Below, in pieces: positions 1-6,864 of a DNA stretch of 6,864 bases. A program made the translations under genes and the position numbers. This DNA is from an uncultured Pseudomonadota bacterium (GTDB taxonomy: Bacteria; Myxococcota; UBA796), in assembly GCA_913040875.1 (NCBI GenBank), contig CAJWHX010000184.1, positions 1-6,864 on the forward strand. The letters are read 5' to 3'. Position 1 is the first letter of the stretch; the number at the start of each line of letters is the position of its first letter. A model generated the notes under the pieces. That model had not been told where the DNA came from and made no database searches. It saw only the letters and a program-made list of their open reading frames with translations.

Positions 1-3000
1 GACAAAGCGGCGGCCAGTTCCACCGCCATCAGTGAGTCAAAGCCCAGGTCTGCTTGGAGATTGGTGCCCAGAGTGATTTTATCAGTCGATACACCGGCGA
101 CGGTAGCGATGGCTTTGTTGATTGCATTGGAAGTGCCACGTTTGGCTTCGGCTCGTGTCGGAGTCGCATCGATGATTTTTTGTAAGATCTCAGCAGAGGA
201 TTTTCGTTGCACCTTTCGCGTACGCGTTCTTGGAAGATCTGCATCGACGATGTGAATGACTGCTGGTCTTTGGTAGGGAAGAAGAGTCATGGCCTTCTTT
301 TTTATTGCATCGAGTGCGTCGCCCATTAGGTCATCTCGATTGAGCTTTTTAGCCTCATCACACTCAGAGTCAACAACTGCCAACAGCCCCAATCGTTCAC
401 CACCACGCGGATCGGATACCCCAACGAGGGTGTATTCTTTAATGAGACGAATGGTCCCCAGCGTGTGTTCGGCGTCATCCAAGTAGATGTTCTCTCCTGA
501 GGAGGTGACGACAACTTCTTTTGCCCTTCCAACGAGGAACAAACGTTTTTTGTGGTCCAACCGTCCCATGTCACCGGTGTGGAGCCATCCATCATTGTCC
601 AGCGCGTTCTCAGTCGCATTTGAGTTGTTGAAATAGCCTTGCATGACGTTTTCGCCGCGTGCCAAGACCTCTCCGACACCATTGTCATCTGGATTGATAA
701 TCTTGACTTCCACACCTGGGATTGTCTTTCCTACGGTGCCTACCTTAGCACCTGGAGCTCCAGAAGATACTGTTAGTACTGGAGCCGCTTCTGTCAATCC
801 ATAGCCTTCAGTGAGATGTAGTCCCAATCCAGAGAAGAACTTTTGCGTGTCTGGAGGTAGAGCGGCTCCGCCCGAGATGAGAAACTTGATGTTTCCACCC
901 AAGCGACCGTGAATTGGTGCAAAAAGCAATCGACCCACATCCAGTTTGGCATTTTTACCCAACCTACGATTCAATTCCAGCATGGCGTCGATAATGGCTT
1001 CAAATAGAGACCCTTGATCTTGGATCTGCCCTTTGATTCTACGTTCTAGAAGTTGCCAAAGTGCAGGTACTCCAACCATGGCTGTAACCTGTCCCGCCTG
1101 CAACCCATGACTCAGTTGCTCACCGGTGATCTCATCGAGGTAAATGATGCTGGCACCAAGGCTCAGAGGCATCAACAATCCGCAACTGAACTCAAACGTG
1201 TGGTGTAATGGAAGGACAGAGAGCAGTCGATCTTCACTAGAGATGGAAAAGAGTTTACCCAGAGAAGACAACATTGCCGTAAAGTTGCCGTGACTCAACA
1301 TGACTCCTTTTGGAATACCTGTGGTACCGCTGGTATACAGGATAGAAGCCAGAGTCTCAGTCGTGATGTCTGCACGTTCGGTAGTATTCTCTGCTCCCGG
1401 TATCTCTTCAGCCATGAACTGCATGTCGAGTTTCTCTACGGTGAGTTCATTCGCAAATGTATCCAAAGCCTCTTGATCAAAGATTCCAACGTTGGCTTGT
1501 GCAGAGGTGTCGATTGTGATCGCTTGGACAGAGGTCAATGCGACATCGAGCGGAACAGCCACGGCTCCAGCAACCAAGATTCCAAAATAGCAGATCGGCC
1601 AGGTGGGGTGATTCGCTCCGGATAAATACACTCTGTCTCCAGCCTGGACACCTGCCTTTTTCAAGCGTAAGGCGACAGAATGAGCGCGCACACGTAGTTC
1701 TTTGTAGGAGATTCTTGTAAAGCCATCGTCATGGGTTTGCATGAGCGCAGGGAGATGTTCGTATCGTTCAGCGATTTCATCGAGCATATCAACCAAATGG
1801 TCATAGGCTCGGAGTGGTTTGCTCTCTCGGTTTCGTTTTTCTTCAACCAGTGGAAATACATTCTCTACCAATCCAGGACAGTGGATATCGAGGATGTATT
1901 CACGCCAGTCGATATCGAGGGGCAACCAAGGGAGGAGTTGTTTTTCATCATCACTCAGTCGATCGTAGGCTTGATCTGTATGCAGTGTGGAGAATCGATA
2001 GTTGTGTGTAGCGGTAAACGGTACAAACTGGTCTGTAATTCGACCGGTGATTTCTAGACTCTTTACCAATCCATTGATCGATTTTCGTGCGGGTTTTGCA
2101 AGGGATGATAGTACGCCTGTCTCGAGTGGCTTCAACCACTTTCCAAGTTGCTGTACTTGTTTGGCTTGAATCTTGGGTCCGCGGTTCCAATACGTGTTGA
2201 CACTCACGGGGGTAGCTTCGATACGCTGCTGTACAGTAGCCAACAATGGATTCTTCCCTTCCTCTCGGATGCGTTTTCTTTTGTGTAGGGATACAAGCTC
2301 CACCAATCGATACATGGGTAGTGGATTGCTTGCCGAGGTTCCGTACTGATAGACTGTTTTATGGGTGTTTTCGAGCAACTCCGCACAGGACAACACCATA
2401 CCGATGGCGACCAAGTCTACAGGGATGACGTCGAGTACAGATTCCTTGGTCGTGGGAACCAATAAAGGACCTTGATTGATCAGGTAAATTAAGGGGGCGG
2501 ATGTATTGATACCTTCGTTCCAGCCTATTTTCGGGAAGTGAACTGCCGATTCAATAACCGCCGGGCGGACAATGCTAAATGTCAGTCCAGAGCGACAGAG
2601 GATTTGCTCTCCGATTGATTTTGTGTAGGTGTAAATGTTGTGCCAGCCCCAGAACTGAGCCCGTTCAGTACCTTCGACAACCAATTGGTCTTCGACGAAC
2701 TTTCGTTCCACTCGTTTGAGTTCTTTGTCAAGTGCTTTTCCTCGGGTGGGCTCACCCTTCGCTGTTAAGTTGTTTTTGGCAACATCTAAGAAGTCTGATT
2801 GACGAAAAGCATCTTGAGCCCGACGTTTGGCGTGGGTCACCATATCCATGCACTCTTTGATTTCCATGTCGGGATCCCAGTGCTTGATGTCGAGCGTATC
2901 CGCTTTTGGAAACGGAAAGGATAGGGGGTTTATCTCGTCTACAGTACCGGTTCTGTCACCAGCAACATAGCAAGTTGAGGTGTGTAAAAACTTGATGTCT

Positions 3001-3476
3001 CCCAAATCTTTGGCTAGAGCAACCAAGTTTTGCATACCAAACGCATTGACATCTAAGGATTTATCCAATGGCGGATTGAAGTCTACAACTCCACTTGAGT
3101 TGACAAGGATGTCTACCTTTCCGCGAAGCACATTTCTCAGGTCATCAGAGATACCACCAAAAGGATTGGTCACATCCCCATCGATGGCGGTGACCTTTTC
3201 ATTTAGGAACTCCATGTAAGCCGCTTTTGGATGTTGTTCACGAATGGGGTCAAAAGCTCCAGAGGTTGCAACCTCTGTTAAAAAACGCTGTTCAGAACTT
3301 TGTCGAATGGACCCGTCTGAGCGTTTTCTCGATCGCACGACCATATAAATGTGCTCGACATCAGGAAAGTGTGCCAAGACTAGTGACATCCAAACCTTTC
3401 CTAAAAATCCTGTTCCACCATACAAGAGTATGGTTTTGCCTTTTAACTGTTTCGTTACGTTCAAACTCTGTTCCAT
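1..3476 (-). CDS. Multidomain fatty acyl reductase - acyl-CoA/ACP ligase - acyl carrier protein (3' partial, runs off left edge)
   Basis: One open frame of 1158 codons from ATG at 3476 with no stop before the edge; I translated it throughout. Residues ~13-360 are an NADPH-dependent fatty acyl reductase (NAD_binding_4): Rossmann GGTGFLGK (20-27), TSTCY (166-170), catalytic Y282/K286 in YTYTK, then IVRPAV and DVIPVDLV. WGWHNIYTYTKSIGEQ resembles bacterial alcohol-forming FARs. Residues ~430-540 (YRF near 493, later IDWREY) look like the FAR C-terminal domain. Residues ~560-1095 are a FadD-like ANL ligase: YTSGTTG-PKG (714-724), EGYGLTE (890-896), TGD (967-969), VGRAKE (982-987), and PRTRTRK with the likely catalytic K1088. 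Residues ~1110-1158 begin an acyl carrier domain, with phosphopantetheine Ser1148 in LGFDSL. Inferred role: activate a fatty acid with ATP, load it on the carrier or CoA, and reduce it to a fatty alcohol. RBS AGGA lies 6 nt upstream. More domains, possibly an acyltransferase, may follow outside the window. Domain calls are confident; the product is inferred. Confidence 0.93.
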   Translation of the reverse strand, partial: MEQSLNVTKQLKGKTILLYGGTGFLGKVWMSLVLAHFPDVEHIYMVVRSRKRSDGSIRQSSEQRFLTEVATSGAFDPIREQHPKAAYMEFLNEKVTAIDGDVTNPFGGISDDLRNVLRGKVDILVNSSGVVDFNPPLDKSLDVNAFGMQNLVALAKDLGDIKFLHTSTCYVAGDRTGTVDEINPLSFPFPKADTLDIKHWDPDMEIKECMDMVTHAKRRAQDAFRQSDFLDVAKNNLTAKGEPTRGKALDKELKRVERKFVEDQLVVEGTERAQFWGWHNIYTYTKSIGEQILCRSGLTFSIVRPAVIESAVHFPKIGWNEGINTSAPLIYLINQGPLLVPTTKESVLDVIPVDLVAIGMVLSCAELLENTHKTVYQYGTSASNPLPMYRLVELVSLHKRKRIREEGKNPLLATVQQRIEATPVSVNTYWNRGPKIQAKQVQQLGKWLKPLETGVLSSLAKPARKSINGLVKSLEITGRITDQFVPFTATHNYRFSTLHTDQAYDRLSDDEKQLLPWLPLDIDWREYILDIHCPGLVENVFPLVEEKRNRESKPLRAYDHLVDMLDEIAERYEHLPALMQTHDDGFTRISYKELRVRAHSVALRLKKAGVQAGDRVYLSGANHPTWPICYFGILVAGAVAVPLDVALTSVQAITIDTSAQANVGIFDQEALDTFANELTVEKLDMQFMAEEIPGAENTTERADITTETLASILYTSGTTGIPKGVMLSHGNFTAMLSSLGKLFSISSEDRLLSVLPLHHTFEFSCGLLMPLSLGASIIYLDEITGEQLSHGLQAGQVTAMVGVPALWQLLERRIKGQIQDQGSLFEAIIDAMLELNRRLGKNAKLDVGRLLFAPIHGRLGGNIKFLISGGAALPPDTQKFFSGLGLHLTEGYGLTEAAPVLTVSSGAPGAKVGTVGKTIPGVEVKIINPDDNGVGEVLARGENVMQGYFNNSNATENALDNDGWLHTGDMGRLDHKKRLFLVGRAKEVVVTSSGENIYLDDAEHTLGTIRLIKEYTLVGVSDPRGGERLGLLAVVDSECDEAKKLNRDDLMGDALDAIKKKAMTLLPYQRPAVIHIVDADLPRTRTRKVQRKSSAEILQKIIDATPTRAEAKRGTSNAINKAIATVAGVSTDKITLGTNLQADLGFDSLMAVELAAAL
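3260..3277. repeat. Perfect 18-bp palindrome inside the acyl reductase coding region
   Basis: CAGAGGTTGCAACCTCTG is its own reverse complement. It lies about 200 nt into the acyl reductase gene and encodes residues around EVATSG, just after the Rossmann region. It could be an operator-like protein site or a small cruciform or hairpin, but it may equally be chance within coding sequence. Confidence 0.4.
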
Positions 3477-3522: not shown

Positions 3523-5154
3523 TTATTGTTGGTCCAATTCGGCGCGTTCTTCCTCGGTGAGTTCAACATCTGCCAGCATCAAAGGACAGATTCTAAAGCA
3601 GGTGATGGATGGGTCTACGGGAGCCGTTTCCTTGGCCATTCGAATGGCTTCTTGCATCGTCCGAGCCGTTTCATATCCCAAGATTTTGGGGATGTATTCG
3701 TTGTCGGCACCCACTACGATGACTCGGCTGCGATGCTTTCGTCCATTTTCACCCCAGTACCACATGTAAAATGGATGAGTCGGATGGTAGGCGTTGCCTG
3801 AACGATACATCTGAATGTATGCTGGATTGCGTGAGAACTCTCTTTCGAATCGCTTATGCAGTTCCATAGCGTCTCGTGTTTGCGGGAGTAGTTTATGGAA
3901 GAACTCTACATATGCGAGGTGCTGTTCTTTATCGAACTTGTCAGTGCATGGATGGGTAATGATGATGGTGCCACCCTTTTTCAGCAATGGGGCGCCGCGG
4001 TGGAGATTGTATAGGTATCCCTCAGCCATCACAGATACCAACAGTGGATTCAAAAATGCACCCACGTTGTATGGCGAGATGTACGGAATCGGGAAGATGA
4101 CAATGTCTGATTGACCTTTGACTGGGACGGCGAGCTGTTGAAAGCACTTTTCTAAGATGAGCTTATGTACGGCCTCAGTCTCTCCAGCATGAACGGCGAT
4201 TACTCCATATGGTGCGGGCACCTTTTCGAAGATGGCTTGTCGAGCTGGCTGTGGAAGGGTTTTGAGAGAGCGAATTAGAGCCTTCATTCCAAACTGTTCC
4301 ATTGGTGTAAGGTCATCTTCATTTTTACTCAAAAAGTCGAGGGGCTTTGCGAACATTCGATTGTTGATGGTACTTTCGATGTGGAAGACATCAATCTTTT
4401 CGTTGATGAATCGACCAATCGACTCCATTGCAGATGAGAGCGCACTGGACTTCTTGTCGGTAAAGTTGGGGTCCATGTACGATTTTGTTTTGCGCAATGT
4501 CGCAGGGTTATGGTGGGCTTTTAGCGTTTTGTATCCAGCCAATCCCGTTCCGACAGACTTAAAGCCACCGTTCATTGGTACAAAGGTGAGGTTGAGATAA
4601 ATCAAGAGGTCACTTTTTGCAGCGCGGGCGTTGATTTCGACGTCGTAGCCTTCCTTCGTTGTCCCGAGATGCACCATGCCGTCCGGTAACTCCGCATCGT
4701 GATTGTACAATCGATCGGGGGCATATTCGTTGTATATACGGTCTCCAACAATATGACGAATCTCTTCTTCTTTCATCGGACGGTGAAATGCAGTGGCAAC
4801 CACCATTTCAATATCGTCGATGGCATAATCTTCGAGCATTGCCAGAACAACTTCAAGCATTTGTTGCCGGATATCCGGTTTCGCCATGGGTGGCAGTGGC
4901 ATTGAAAGATCGTCAATAGCAATGGTGACTTTCATCCCAGGTTTCAGTTTTGCAAACAACGGTTCACTGTTTTCTGGATGATTGATTGCGTAGCGAATGG
5001 CCGCCTTAACATCATTGAGTGGCTCCATAGGGGGCTTTGGATAAATGACTCGAGTTCCAATAGGCAAATCGACTTCAACCAGTTGGTCTCCGCTAAACAA
5101 TACACGAGGCTTCGATTGGTGATTGATGGTCACGACGCAGGGGTGATTTGACAT
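3523..5154 (-). CDS. LarA-like (lactate racemase domain, DUF2088) protein, 543 aa
   Basis: Related to the nickel-pincer enzyme lactate racemase LarA. From the ATG at 5154, landmarks in order are: DDLSMPLPP (81-89), in the place of the LarA DDxTRPxP motif; ATAFHRPMKEEE (H124), matching the GTHRxMTxEE region; NHD (H152); PMNGGFKSVGTGLAGYKT (193-210); and AHH (213-215). LarA uses two catalytic histidines, a lysine and a nickel-ligand histidine. The PH-x-GFSGG histidine appears replaced by Met194, while the GGxK lysine and the last histidine look kept, so racemase activity is doubtful. The protein is longer than typical LarA (about 420 aa), with a charged insert near 223-310 and a C-terminal extension rich in aromatic residues near 444-468. 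No signal peptide or membrane segment is evident, so it is probably cytoplasmic. An in-frame TTG at 5175 would add 7 residues, but ATG at 5154 has AAGGA 7 nt upstream and is preferred. It sits between a HAD hydrolase and an acyl reductase-ligase, suggesting a lipid-pathway role. Substrate unknown. Confidence 0.85.
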   Translation of the reverse strand: MSNHPCVVTINHQSKPRVLFSGDQLVEVDLPIGTRVIYPKPPMEPLNDVKAAIRYAINHPENSEPLFAKLKPGMKVTIAIDDLSMPLPPMAKPDIRQQMLEVVLAMLEDYAIDDIEMVVATAFHRPMKEEEIRHIVGDRIYNEYAPDRLYNHDAELPDGMVHLGTTKEGYDVEINARAAKSDLLIYLNLTFVPMNGGFKSVGTGLAGYKTLKAHHNPATLRKTKSYMDPNFTDKKSSALSSAMESIGRFINEKIDVFHIESTINNRMFAKPLDFLSKNEDDLTPMEQFGMKALIRSLKTLPQPARQAIFEKVPAPYGVIAVHAGETEAVHKLILEKCFQQLAVPVKGQSDIVIFPIPYISPYNVGAFLNPLLVSVMAEGYLYNLHRGAPLLKKGGTIIITHPCTDKFDKEQHLAYVEFFHKLLPQTRDAMELHKRFEREFSRNPAYIQMYRSGNAYHPTHPFYMWYWGENGRKHRSRVIVVGADNEYIPKILGYETARTMQEAIRMAKETAPVDPSITCFRICPLMLADVELTEEERAELDQQ

Positions 5155-5192: not shown

Positions 5193-5897
5193 TTAATGAT
5201 TGGAATGAGATTTGCGAAATGATGCAGGGGGCTCATTGTTGATGTCTAGAATGGGCCAACGGTAGGCTTGGGCAAGTCGCTTCAGTTTTCGGGATGGATT
5301 GATGCAAAATGCATGACCGACTACGGACAGCATTGGAACATCTGAGAAGGAGTCTGAGTACGCATGGCACTTTTTGAGATCATATCCATGAATGTGTGCA
5401 TCTTCCACGATGATTTTGGCTTTCTCAGGACCGGCTACCAGTGGATGAAGCATCTTTCCAGTTGCATATCCATCTTTGAATTCCAATCGATTGGCGATGA
5501 AATAATCGGCGCCGAGATGTTGTGTGACATATCGAGTGGTTACGTCTAGTGAACCTGTGACGATAACCACTTTAAAGCCACCTTCTTTACACTGACGAAT
5601 GAGATCATGAGCACCTGAGTAAATGGCTGGTCGGATGATATCTTCAAAGACCTCTCTAGACAGCACTTCAATACGATCTTCTGTCATTCCTCTAAAATGT
5701 GAGAATAAGATCTCATTGAAGTTGCGTCGGTCTTGCATTTCGGCAACGGCCATTCTTGGTGCATCGAACAGTGCACGACCAAATCGTTGTAAGGTCTTTA
5801 GCGGGGAGGCTTGATTTAAAAGATAATACGCAGTCGGTTGGATAAGGCTTGTTCCAACCAATGTACCATCCAAGTCAAAATAGGCTGCTTTTGTCAT
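5193..5897 (-). CDS. HAD-IB family hydrolase (phosphatase-like), 234 aa
   Basis: HAD-superfamily subfamily IB hydrolase, the group that includes SerB and phosphatases linked to glycerolipid acyltransferases. All four motifs are present: motif I DLDGTLVG with nucleophile D8 and acid/base D10; motif II VTGS (113-116); motif III K159 in GPEKAK; and motif IV AYSDSFSDVPML with D182 and D186. Between motifs I and II lies a helical cap (about 16-100). The protein should therefore be a Mg2+-dependent cytoplasmic phosphomonoesterase. The start ATG overlaps the stop of the greB-like gene in ATGA, with GAGGAG 5 nt upstream. The LarA-like gene follows after 38 nt. Specificity cannot be read from the sequence. 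The operon suggests a lipid phosphate, such as an acyl- or alkyl-glycerol phosphate, rather than phosphoserine, but this is inference. Confidence 0.9.
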   Translation of the reverse strand: MTKAAYFDLDGTLVGTSLIQPTAYYLLNQASPLKTLQRFGRALFDAPRMAVAEMQDRRNFNEILFSHFRGMTEDRIEVLSREVFEDIIRPAIYSGAHDLIRQCKEGGFKVVIVTGSLDVTTRYVTQHLGADYFIANRLEFKDGYATGKMLHPLVAGPEKAKIIVEDAHIHGYDLKKCHAYSDSFSDVPMLSVVGHAFCINPSRKLKRLAQAYRWPILDINNEPPASFRKSHSNH

Positions 5898-6409
5898 GAG
5901 GACTCCTCAGTATTATCGGGGTTGTAACCATTGGGGTCTGGTCCGTAGTGGACAGTAATAATGTCGTATGTGACGGTTCCCTTTGGCAAAACCAAATCAA
6001 ATTCGTCGCCTTCTTCTTTACCCAGCAGTGCTCGTCCAATAGGAGATTGTACGGATACGAGCATACGTTCTGGATCGATTTCTTCTTTGTCCACTAAGCG
6101 AAGGGTCATGAGTTTACCATCTTCATCTTCTACGGTCACCAATGCACCAAAAGATACAATCGAACTCTTAGGCAGAGTGTCCGTATCAACGACTTTCACA
6201 TCCTTAATCTTCTGACGGAGAATCCGGAGTCGTTTGTCGATCATTCGCATTCTCTGTTTGCCATAAATATACGCGGCATTTTCAGATCGGTCTCCTTGAA
6301 GTGCGGCATCGTGCACCTCTTGGAGAACCATAGGACGCTCTTCATTCCAGAGAAAATTGATCTCCTCTGTAATGCTGTCGTATCCTCGCTTAGTGAACTG
6401 TCTGGTCAC
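5894..6409 (-). CDS. greB: Transcription elongation factor GreB-type, 171 aa
   Basis: Stimulates the intrinsic RNA-cleavage activity of backtracked RNA polymerase by inserting its N-terminal coiled coil into the secondary channel. The N-terminal part (about 10-75) is the Gre coiled coil, with the tip signature GDRSENAAYIYGK (39-51); D40 and E43 are the acidic residues that help position Mg2+. RMRMIDKRLRIL (53-64) matches GreB better than GreA. The C-terminal FKBP-like domain (about 80-155) has SPIGRALLGKEEGDE (122-136). The tail after residue 156 (GPDPNGYNPDNTEESS) is longer than in E. coli GreB, which has about 158 residues. The start is GTG at 6409, overlapping the FKBP stop in GTGA, with AGGA 6 nt upstream; no suitable ATG exists near the start of the domain. 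It is coupled at its end to the HAD hydrolase by ATGA. Confidence 0.95.
   Translation of the reverse strand: MTRQFTKRGYDSITEEINFLWNEERPMVLQEVHDAALQGDRSENAAYIYGKQRMRMIDKRLRILRQKIKDVKVVDTDTLPKSSIVSFGALVTVEDEDGKLMTLRLVDKEEIDPERMLVSVQSPIGRALLGKEEGDEFDLVLPKGTVTYDIITVHYGPDPNGYNPDNTEESS
5897..5909 (-). promoter_or_regulatory. Small hairpin covering the RBS and start of the HAD hydrolase
   Basis: The mRNA-sense sequence TGAGG-AGT-CCTCA can form a 5-bp stem with a 3-nt loop. The left arm and loop hold the GAGGAG Shine-Dalgarno, and the right arm ends on the A of the ATG. Because the upstream reading frame runs through it and stops at ATGA, translating ribosomes would open it, which is a typical arrangement for translational coupling. 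The stem is short, so the effect may be small. Confidence 0.45.
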
Positions 6410-6864
6410 TGGATATCCTGTAACTCAACGTCGAAAACGAGCATGCCTTCTGGTTTTCCAGGTGCACCTTTATAGGCTAGCTCTGTGGGAATCCAGAATC
6501 GGACTTTGTCTCCAACGACCATTAATTGGAGACCTTCGGTCCATCCAGCGATGACTTGATTGAGACCAAAAGTCGCAGGGCGTCCGCGCATTACAGAAGA
6601 GTCAAACATCTTTCCATCTGTCGTCCAACCGGTGTAGTGGACAGTGACCTTAGCCTCAGGTGCGGGTTTTTCAGTACCCGTTCCTTTACTCAGTACTTTA
6701 TATGCCAATCCAGACGCGGTTGTAGTAGCGTCTGCTGGAGGTGCCGCAACGTCCTCAGGTGCAGCGACCAGTCCTTTTCGTGCAATGTTTGCGTCGTCAC
6801 TTGTTTTACTCACAGTATTGTCCTCACTGGTTGTGTTTGTTTCTGTTTGTTCTGTCACAGTCTT
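6406..6864 (-). CDS. FKBP-type peptidyl-prolyl cis-trans isomerase (5' end unresolved)
   Basis: Catalyses cis-trans isomerisation of Xaa-Pro bonds. Numbering from the GTG at 6858, one FKBP domain covers about 48-150. The FKBP12 pocket is nearly complete: Y75 (YTGW), F85 and D86 (FDSS), F97, V102-I103, W106 (GWTEGLQ), Y129 (LAYKG) and F142. The first ~47 residues are a low-complexity Thr/Ser/Asp/Glu then Ala/Pro linker (DVAAPPADA). This linker often follows a signal peptide or lipobox in deltaproteobacterial exported FKBPs. No signal peptide is visible here, and the frame stays open for two more codons to the window edge, so the real start may lie outside. GTG at 6858 is the only in-window candidate before the domain. 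If the start is outside, the protein may be an envelope lipoprotein; if GTG is the start, it would be cytoplasmic. Its TGA overlaps the GTG of the greB gene. Confidence 0.92.
   Translation of the reverse strand, partial: KTVTEQTETNTTSEDNTVSKTSDDANIARKGLVAAPEDVAAPPADATTTASGLAYKVLSKGTGTEKPAPEAKVTVHYTGWTTDGKMFDSSVMRGRPATFGLNQVIAGWTEGLQLMVVGDKVRFWIPTELAYKGAPGKPEGMLVFDVELQDIQ
6416..6419 (-). promoter_or_regulatory. Shine-Dalgarno site supporting the GTG start of greB
   Basis: AGGA followed by TATCCA (6 nt) and GTG at 6409. The site lies inside the last codons of the FKBP gene, so entry is probably helped by ribosomes finishing that gene. It supports the GTG as a real start where no ATG is available. 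Confidence 0.65.

What the first reader, a model, noticed from the sequence alone, without database searches (positions are those of the whole stretch)
1..3476. Permuted fatty-acid-reducing megaenzyme: reductase first, then ligase, then carrier
The sequence directly shows an N-terminal alcohol-forming FAR domain (GGTGFLGK, Y282xxxK286, FAR_C-like IDWREY), a full long-chain ANL ligase (YTSGTTG, K1088) and an acyl carrier (Ser1148) in one frame. Known carboxylic acid reductases and NRPS terminal reductases have the reductase after the carrier. The reversed order, with a FAR instead of a thioester reductase R domain, suggests one chain that activates free fatty acid and yields a fatty alcohol by four-electron reduction. 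The nearest arrangement I can recall is the ElbD family of myxobacterial ether-lipid synthesis, so the architecture may not be new, but it is rarely characterised.
Basis: partly seen in the sequence, partly recalled or inferred. Interest (0 to 1): 0.72.

Follow-up and report, generated by a model that had tools for sequence, protein, structure and literature searches.

The report
Bacterial ether-lipid megaenzyme, ElbD family
This is most of a gene for a known type of bacterial enzyme chain linked to unusual (ether) membrane lipids; the new point is that it travels with a relative of nickel-cofactor enzymes whose job is unknown.

Summary
In detail: one unbroken minus-strand frame from 3476 to the window edge encodes FAR, ANL ligase and carrier, in that order. 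It is not a complete protein: the window appears to be a whole 6864-base contig that ends inside the carrier. The closest relatives (88-94% identity) are 1556 aa and continue with an acyltransferase (119 of 120 listed relatives) and an SCP2-like domain. This is the architecture of ElbD of Myxococcus xanthus, a known ether-lipid protein, so "free fatty acid to fatty alcohol" covers only part of it. The gene order HAD phosphatase - LarA homolog - ElbD mirrors elbB-elbC-elbD; a review calls elbC's product unknown. The middle gene belongs to LarAH14/15/16, a nickel-pincer-type family. Nineteen of 120 LarAH clusters share an exact contig length with an ElbD cluster (control mean 0.23). In 246 Planctomycetota genomes, all 15 with a full-length LarAH14/15/16 also carry ElbD; 17 carry ElbD. 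Verdict: the megaenzyme is a new member of a known kind; the LarA homolog as pathway partner is the new, testable part. Its reaction is not shown, and a residue that binds the NPN phosphate is missing.

The parts
3..3476 (-). elbD-like gene, N-terminal 1158 codons; 3' end beyond the contig
   Evidence: start ATG 3476 agrees with the start of relative P0001
2406..3419 (-). FAR NAD(P)-binding domain, residues 20-357 (GGTGFLG, Y282xxxK286)
   Evidence: PF07993 E 1.7e-40 (renumbered from ATG 3476); Y282 and K286 in 120 of 120 relatives; PDB 7eoz
1863..2069 (-). FAR C-terminal (Sterile-like) domain, residues 470-538
   Evidence: PF03015 27.1 bits, below cut-off 35.4; weak alignment to the C-terminal part of 7eoz
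213..1781 (-). ANL acyl ligase, residues 566-949 plus C-terminal lobe to K1088
   Evidence: PF00501 E 3.2e-74, PF13193 below cut-off; motifs; K1088 in 115 of 120 relatives, Glu aligned in 5
3..119 (-). acyl carrier domain from residue 1120, cut by the contig end (Ser1148 in GFDSL)
   Evidence: PF00550 E 1.7e-6, profile 4-41 of 67; Ser in 120 of 120
3523..5154 (-). LarA homolog of family LarAH14/15/16, in the elbC position
   Evidence: NF052592 764.4 bits vs cut-off 740; Foldseek best match 9q3k, prob 1.00
5193..5897 (-). HAD-IB phosphatase, in the elbB position
   Evidence: PF12710 2.7e-35; TIGR01490 130.3 vs 98.3 bits
5894..6409 (-). GreA/GreB-type transcription factor, 4-base overlap with the HAD gene
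   Evidence: PF01272 and PF03449; coordinates
6406..6858 (-). FKBP-type isomerase, 4-base overlap with gre; frame is open to the contig edge, so the start is uncertain
   Evidence: PF00254 3.1e-23

Best explanation
The gene is the 5' three quarters of an ElbD-family ether-lipid protein, last in a compact gene row FKBP-gre-HAD-larAH-elbD that looks like elbB-elbC-elbD with two housekeeping-type genes in front. Inferred action: the ligase adenylates a free fatty acid and loads it on Ser1148 of the carrier (or on CoA). The carrier-bound acyl can then go to the FAR domain, which reduces it with NADPH to aldehyde or alcohol, or to the acyltransferase beyond the contig end, which puts it on a glycerol-phosphate-type acceptor; the SCP2-like tail holds the lipid. 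So one chain could supply both halves needed for an ether lipid. Shown here: domains, order, catalytic residues, gene row, co-occurrence. Reported for M. xanthus by a review: ligase and carrier activity, and strong loss of ether lipids in elbD mutants. Inferred: FAR product, acceptor, lipid holding, channelling.
For: Domain order; acyltransferase in relatives; HX4D in 119 of 120, and FAR, carrier and most ligase residues conserved; FAR-type reductase; SCP2-like tail. A review gives ElbD as FAR1-like, ACS, ACP and AGPAT-like domains, elbB as a HAD-like hydrolase gene and elbC as unknown; ElbD homologs of sponge symbionts have the same four domains. Close HAD and LarAH clusters share exact contig lengths with ElbD clusters.
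Against: M. xanthus ElbD itself was not obtained, so there is no direct alignment. Acyltransferase and SCP2-like part lie outside the window and are taken from relatives. FAR_C is below Pfam's cut-off. The review says that neither acyltransferase activity nor fatty alcohols were detected with isolated ElbD and favours an aldehyde finding as what led to earlier proposals, so two of the steps have no biochemical support. [quoted passage not shown]
Confidence: 0.85

Rival explanations
1. A self-contained fatty-acid-to-fatty-alcohol reductase, for example for wax esters; what follows the carrier is accessory.
For: FAR-type reductase with conserved YxxxK; ligase and carrier in one chain.
Against: Acyltransferase motif in 119 of 120 relatives; no fatty alcohol detected with isolated M. 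xanthus ElbD according to a review.
Confidence: 0.1
2. An assembly join of two separate genes (a FAR and a ligase-carrier).
For: None beyond the unusual order.
Against: Relatives at 94, 89, 89 and 88% identity on different contigs cover the whole query; the same fusion occurs in 16 of 246 Planctomycetota genomes at 33-39% identity to P0102.
Confidence: 0.01
3. A carboxylic acid reductase or NRPS-type terminal reductase with shuffled domains.
For: The ligase part has distant matches to CAR and NRPS chains in the PDB.
Against: The reductase lies first and is FAR-type: 7eoz E 2.5e-41 against MxaA 5.6e-5.
Confidence: 0.03
4. The LarA homolog is a neighbour and co-inherited gene with no role in the lipid pathway.
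For: No biochemistry links them; a LarAH14 from Frankia showed none of seven activities assayed, and whether Frankia has ElbD was not tested; 2 of 17 ElbD genomes lack it; kinship could explain part of the pattern.
Against: Exact contig-length sharing 19 of 120 (control mean 0.23, maximum 2 over 600 shifts); 15 of 15 full-length LarAH genomes of 246 have ElbD, although in 13 of the 15 the two genes lie on different contigs or far apart.
Confidence: 0.35

Closest known systems
ElbD of Myxococcus xanthus (ABF88003.1) and the elb operon
   Same: FAR1-like, acyl ligase, carrier and AGPAT-like acyltransferase in one chain; HAD gene (elbB), elbC, then elbD, as described in PMC9131029 (passages).
   Different: The window is cut before the acyltransferase; the gene in the elbC position is here identified as LarAH14/15/16; gre and FKBP genes lie in front; elbE is not visible. 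Sequences were not compared. The accession is from PMC11868695; that it is MXAN_1528 is recalled.
ElbD-like NRPS-like clusters of sponge symbionts (PMC9426513)
   Same: Acyl-CoA-reductase-like, acyl-CoA synthetase, thiolation and acyltransferase domains, flanked by hydrolases/dehydratases (passages).
   Different: Acidobacteriota and Poribacteria; no LarA homolog mentioned in the passages seen.
Fatty acyl-CoA reductase of PDB 7eoz
   Same: NAD(P)-binding domain clearly, C-terminal stretch weakly.
   Different: A chain of 532 residues; here the FAR is fused to a ligase and carrier.
Single-histidine LarA homologs of Streptococcus plurextorum and Blautia wexlerae (9q2u/9q3k, 9q3j)
   Same: Best sequence and structure matches of the window LarAH; one catalytic His.
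   Different: Those have Asn for the second His and Lys near the NPN phosphate (PMC12611868, passages); here the loop is 4 residues shorter and the basic residue is Met85.

Membership tests
ElbD | N-terminal FAR1-like reductase | tested here: met
   PF07993; 7eoz
ElbD | Acyl ligase followed by carrier with Ser | tested here: met
ElbD | AGPAT-like acyltransferase after the carrier | tested here: inconclusive
   Window ends inside the carrier; present in 119 of 120 listed relatives
ElbD | Neighbour elbB (HAD-like hydrolase) | tested here: met
   HAD at 5193-5897
ElbD | Neighbour elbE | not testable with these tools
   contig ends inside elbD
ElbD | Direct homology to M. xanthus ElbD | not tested
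   its sequence was not obtained
ElbD | Needed for ether lipids | not testable with these tools
   needs experiment
Carboxylic acid reductase / NRPS terminal reductase | Reductase after the carrier, thioester-reductase type | tested here: not met
LarA superfamily (neighbour gene) | NPN-attaching Lys, Ni-ligand His, ribose-binding Asp | tested here: met
   K199, H215, D82 by alignment to 9q2u; kept in 15 of 15 Planctomycetota copies
LarA superfamily (neighbour gene) | Basic residue binding the NPN phosphate (Arg75 of LarA) | tested here: not met
   Met85; Leu or Ile in the 15 Planctomycetota copies
LarA superfamily (neighbour gene) | Two catalytic His (H108, H174 of LarA) | tested here: not met
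   H124 present, second His absent in a shorter loop; groups 14 and 15 are reported to lack it (PMC12611868, passages)
LarAH14/15/16 (NF052592) | Score over the curated cut-off | tested here: met
   764.4 vs 740 bits

The most novel reading that the evidence does not exclude
The gene of unknown function in the elb operon (elbC position) is a nickel-pincer-type LarA homolog, and ether-lipid synthesis is the role of the orphan family LarAH14/15/16. Boldest form, pure inference: with one acid/base histidine it does not racemise but moves a hydride within a substrate, for example from C2 of glycerol phosphate to an aldehyde-derived oxocarbenium (aldehyde from the FAR domain), giving 1-O-alkyl-dihydroxyacetone phosphate without alkylglycerone-phosphate synthase.
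Probability: 0.5. Interest if true: 0.78.

Novelty: new member of a known kind. Interest (0 to 1): 0.5.

Why it matters
According to a review, ether lipids of M. xanthus depend mainly on ElbD and most steps and enzymes of the route remain uncharacterised. If the LarA homolog is part of it, two open questions become one experiment: what elbC does, and what LarA homologs without the second histidine catalyse. The boldest form would be a nickel-organometallic step in membrane lipid synthesis.

Tried and rejected
Own genome: none held. The single genome-contig scan chose patterns that found 58 loci, all matching the ligase part (query residues from 525 on) at 26-32% identity, so no named myxobacterial ElbD locus was reached. 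Other searches for the LarA homolog: PF09861 in 4 genomes reached through loci (1 of 4); NF052592 in 9 genomes of the phylum of G001 (3 weak, none over cut-off), in 4 further genomes (1 weak), in 398 genomes of the phylum of G258, a Paracoccaceae record by title (0 at 1e-40), and in 193 genomes of the phylum of G003, an Omnitrophota record by title (0 at 1e-30). In some searches no control rang, so they do not prove absence. Ten ORFs near ElbD in Planctomycetota, chosen mechanically, gave no recurring lipid gene; five of the ten had no Pfam match. Promoter- and terminator-like sites in the window were not above the shuffled expectation (5 against 8.1, 7 against 6.2). Locus tags MXAN_1525-1528: four papers, none with MXAN_1527. 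Search for ElbD, ElbC or ElbB: 82 papers, 20 listed; the only listed paper holding ElbC together with ElbD is PMC9131029. No paper held has 'DUF2088' or 'lactate racemase' together with 'ether lipid'; of 106 papers the 20 listed hold no 'nickel-pincer'. A broad search for the multidomain architecture with SCP2 listed 12 of 21 papers, of which only PMC9131029 was opened. Novelty claims rest on these searches of an open-licence library only.

A script error: one search took an alignment row for the window, so its LarAH, HAD, Gre and FKBP queries were empty; found and repeated correctly. Only one search is used.
Full report
What is there. The minus-strand frame from ATG 3476 runs 1158 codons to the window edge. 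Pfam finds NAD_binding_4, a sub-threshold Sterile/FAR_C, AMP-binding, a sub-threshold AMP-binding_C and the first part of PP-binding. The upstream in-frame ATG at 3569 would overlap the preceding gene; relative P0001 begins at the 3476 start. The window's LarAH protein is listed with a longest contig of 6864 bases, so the window appears to be a complete contig and its edge a contig end.

Not an assembly join, and not complete. The search gave 4080 proteins at E 0.001 or better of 7993 scored, 120 listed. The best four cover all of the query at 94, 89, 89 and 88% identity and are 1556 aa long. Of the 120, all but P0075 (1267 aa) are listed with the acyltransferase PF01553. In an alignment of the 120 the HX4D motif is in 119, the FAR Tyr and Lys in 120, the carrier Ser in 120 and the ligase Lys in 115, with Glu aligned in 5.

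A further domain. The last 130 or so residues of P0001 match no fitting Pfam family. Of 24 relatives (chosen by me from 33 printed, themselves picked from the 120) 13 match SCP2 at E 0.1 or better, best 4.4e-5; the one shown in full was below the family cut-off (15.3 vs 21.3 bits). A profile of the 24 finds five PDB sequences at E 1 or better, best 3.7e-6, all SCP2 or SCP2-like domains by the entry titles. A model with mean pLDDT 91.9 matches SCP2-fold proteins with probability 1.00 and modest TM-scores of about 0.4-0.6, the top rows being the SCP2-like part of alkylsulfatases (that these carry an SCP2-like tail is recalled) and human SCP2. The passages I read name only FAR, ligase, carrier and acyltransferase.

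Reductase type. The FAR region matches 7eoz at 2.5e-41, with its C-terminal stretch weak (i-E 0.043), and MxaA only at 5.6e-5. That supports FAR type over CAR or NRPS type. It does not decide between aldehyde and alcohol as product.

Known system. PMC9131029 (passages) describes ElbD of M. xanthus as FAR1-like, ACS, ACP and AGPAT-like domains; elbB encodes a HAD-like protein, elbC a protein of unknown function; elbD insertion strongly reduces ether lipids; ligase and carrier activities were confirmed in vitro; FAR and acyltransferase activities were not. It also says that ElbD-like homologs of other phyla almost all lack FAR1, whereas 16 of 246 Planctomycetota genomes here have the full FAR form. 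The original report (Lorenzen et al. 2014) was not read. PMC9426513 (passages) reports the same four-domain gene in sponge symbionts. The window gene is filed as an ElbD-family member, with the acyltransferase criterion taken from relatives and no direct alignment to M. xanthus ElbD.

The gene row. In transcription order: FKBP, gre, HAD, LarA homolog, elbD, with 4-base overlaps between the first three and gaps of 38 and 46 bases before and after the LarA homolog (coordinates; families). HAD - LarAH - ElbD has the order elbB - elbC - elbD.

The LarA homolog. It scores 764.4 bits for NF052592, 'NPN-dependent hydroxyacid isomerase, LarAH14/15/16 family', cut-off 740. Its model (pLDDT 90.9) best matches 9q3k, a single-histidine LarA enzyme (TM 0.87 by target). 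It keeps D82 (ribose Asp), H124 (first catalytic His), K199 (NPN Lys) and H215 (Ni ligand), but lacks the second catalytic His, in a loop 4 residues shorter, and has Met85 where the compared enzymes have Arg or Lys near the NPN phosphate (alignments; conservation; 15 Planctomycetota copies). PMC12611868 (passages) states that groups 14 and 15 lack the His. PMC7583248 (passages) reports none of seven activities for LarAH14 of Frankia, suspects that groups 12, 13 and 16 do not use NPN, and suggests that homologs with one His might move a hydride to an adjacent site. PMC11770544 (passages) describes a LarAH15 of Phytophthora as a gluconate epimerase; how that number relates to this family is unresolved. 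NPN dependence of the window protein is therefore plausible, not shown.

Linkage in relatives. Protein hits carry the longest contig of each cluster. Exact length identity between the 120 listed LarAH and 120 listed ElbD hits occurs 19 times, against a mean of 0.23 and maximum of 2 over 600 shifts; HAD-ElbD 15 of 120 (mean 0.16, maximum 3); HAD-LarAH 14 of 120 (mean 0.49, maximum 4); five lengths are in all three sets (first done). This compares clusters, not verified contigs; other contigs of a cluster are not shown. Four of the 19 pairs bear the same group name on both sides: one Myxococcota, one Proteobacteria, two Alphaproteobacteria.

Of 246 genomes, 95 match ElbD P0102 at 1e-30, most of them only over the ligase part; 16 match over at least 1150 of its 1529 residues. 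One more, G032, has two pieces, residues 12-658 running to one contig end and 683-1366 from another contig start, which fits one gene split by the assembly; the second piece has ligase, carrier and acyltransferase. Of the same 246, 16 match NF052592 at 1e-30; 15 have a single full-length match of 689 bits or more (12 of them over the cut-off), and one, G049, has a divergent match in two pieces that I do not count. All 15 are among the 17 ElbD genomes; G068 (a weak LarA match of 42 bits only) and G153 (none) have ElbD without it. The other 229 have neither full-length gene (Fisher 3.8e-22, not corrected for kinship). Kinship matters: 9 of the 15 are in one order of which 10 genomes were searched and 3 in another. 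Within that second order, 4 of 9 genomes have LarAH and all 4 are among the 6 with an ElbD match at 1e-60, one of them (G853) only over residues 575-1384. Only 2 candidates per genome were scored for ElbD, so ElbD without LarAH may be undercounted. The two genes are near each other in 2 of the 15 (G032, G190); the other 13 have them on different contigs or far apart. A HAD homolog was found in 8 of 15 LarAH loci and in 3 of 14 full-length-ElbD loci, together in 11 of 15 genomes (some loci are short contigs). In G032 the order is ElbD, HAD, zinc alcohol dehydrogenase, LarAH, diacylglycerol-kinase-like. Pairwise identities of ElbD and LarAH correlate: r 0.91 in 13 Planctomycetota pairs (13 of 15; G146 and G176 were left out because the stretches with their ElbD were not in the ORF set) and 0.73 in the 19 contig-length pairs; shared vertical descent alone would also give this. 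The NPN-pathway gene larC (PF01969) is in 16 of the 17 ElbD genomes, missing in G056; the background rate in the phylum was not measured, and 6 of 14 control genomes have it.

Reading. The megaenzyme is a further ElbD and ordinary as such. Its frequent companion, a LarA homolog without assigned reaction, is a specific lead. I put 0.5 on a real role in ether-lipid synthesis and well under 0.1 on the specific hydride-shift mechanism in the section on the most novel reading.

Noticed in passing
P0001 residues 1425-1556 and relatives (beyond the window): ElbD relatives end in an SCP2-like domain not named in the passages read.
   Followed up: yes
L091 (G032): ElbD piece, HAD, zinc alcohol dehydrogenase, LarAH and a diacylglycerol-kinase-like gene in a row.
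   Followed up: partly
L098:426-1541, L101:8816-9913: An AIR-synthase-related protein lies directly next to the LarAH gene in two Planctomycetota loci.
   Followed up: no
G102, G015, G083, G135: Matches from ligase through acyltransferase without the FAR domain; none of these four genomes has a match to NF052592 at 1e-30.
   Followed up: no
P0001 residue 1088 column: Five of 120 relatives have Glu aligned at the ligase catalytic Lys; could be misalignment.
   Followed up: no
window 5894-6858: A GreA/B factor and an FKBP isomerase gene overlap by 4 bases and precede the HAD gene; whether they belong to the lipid operon is unknown.
   Followed up: no
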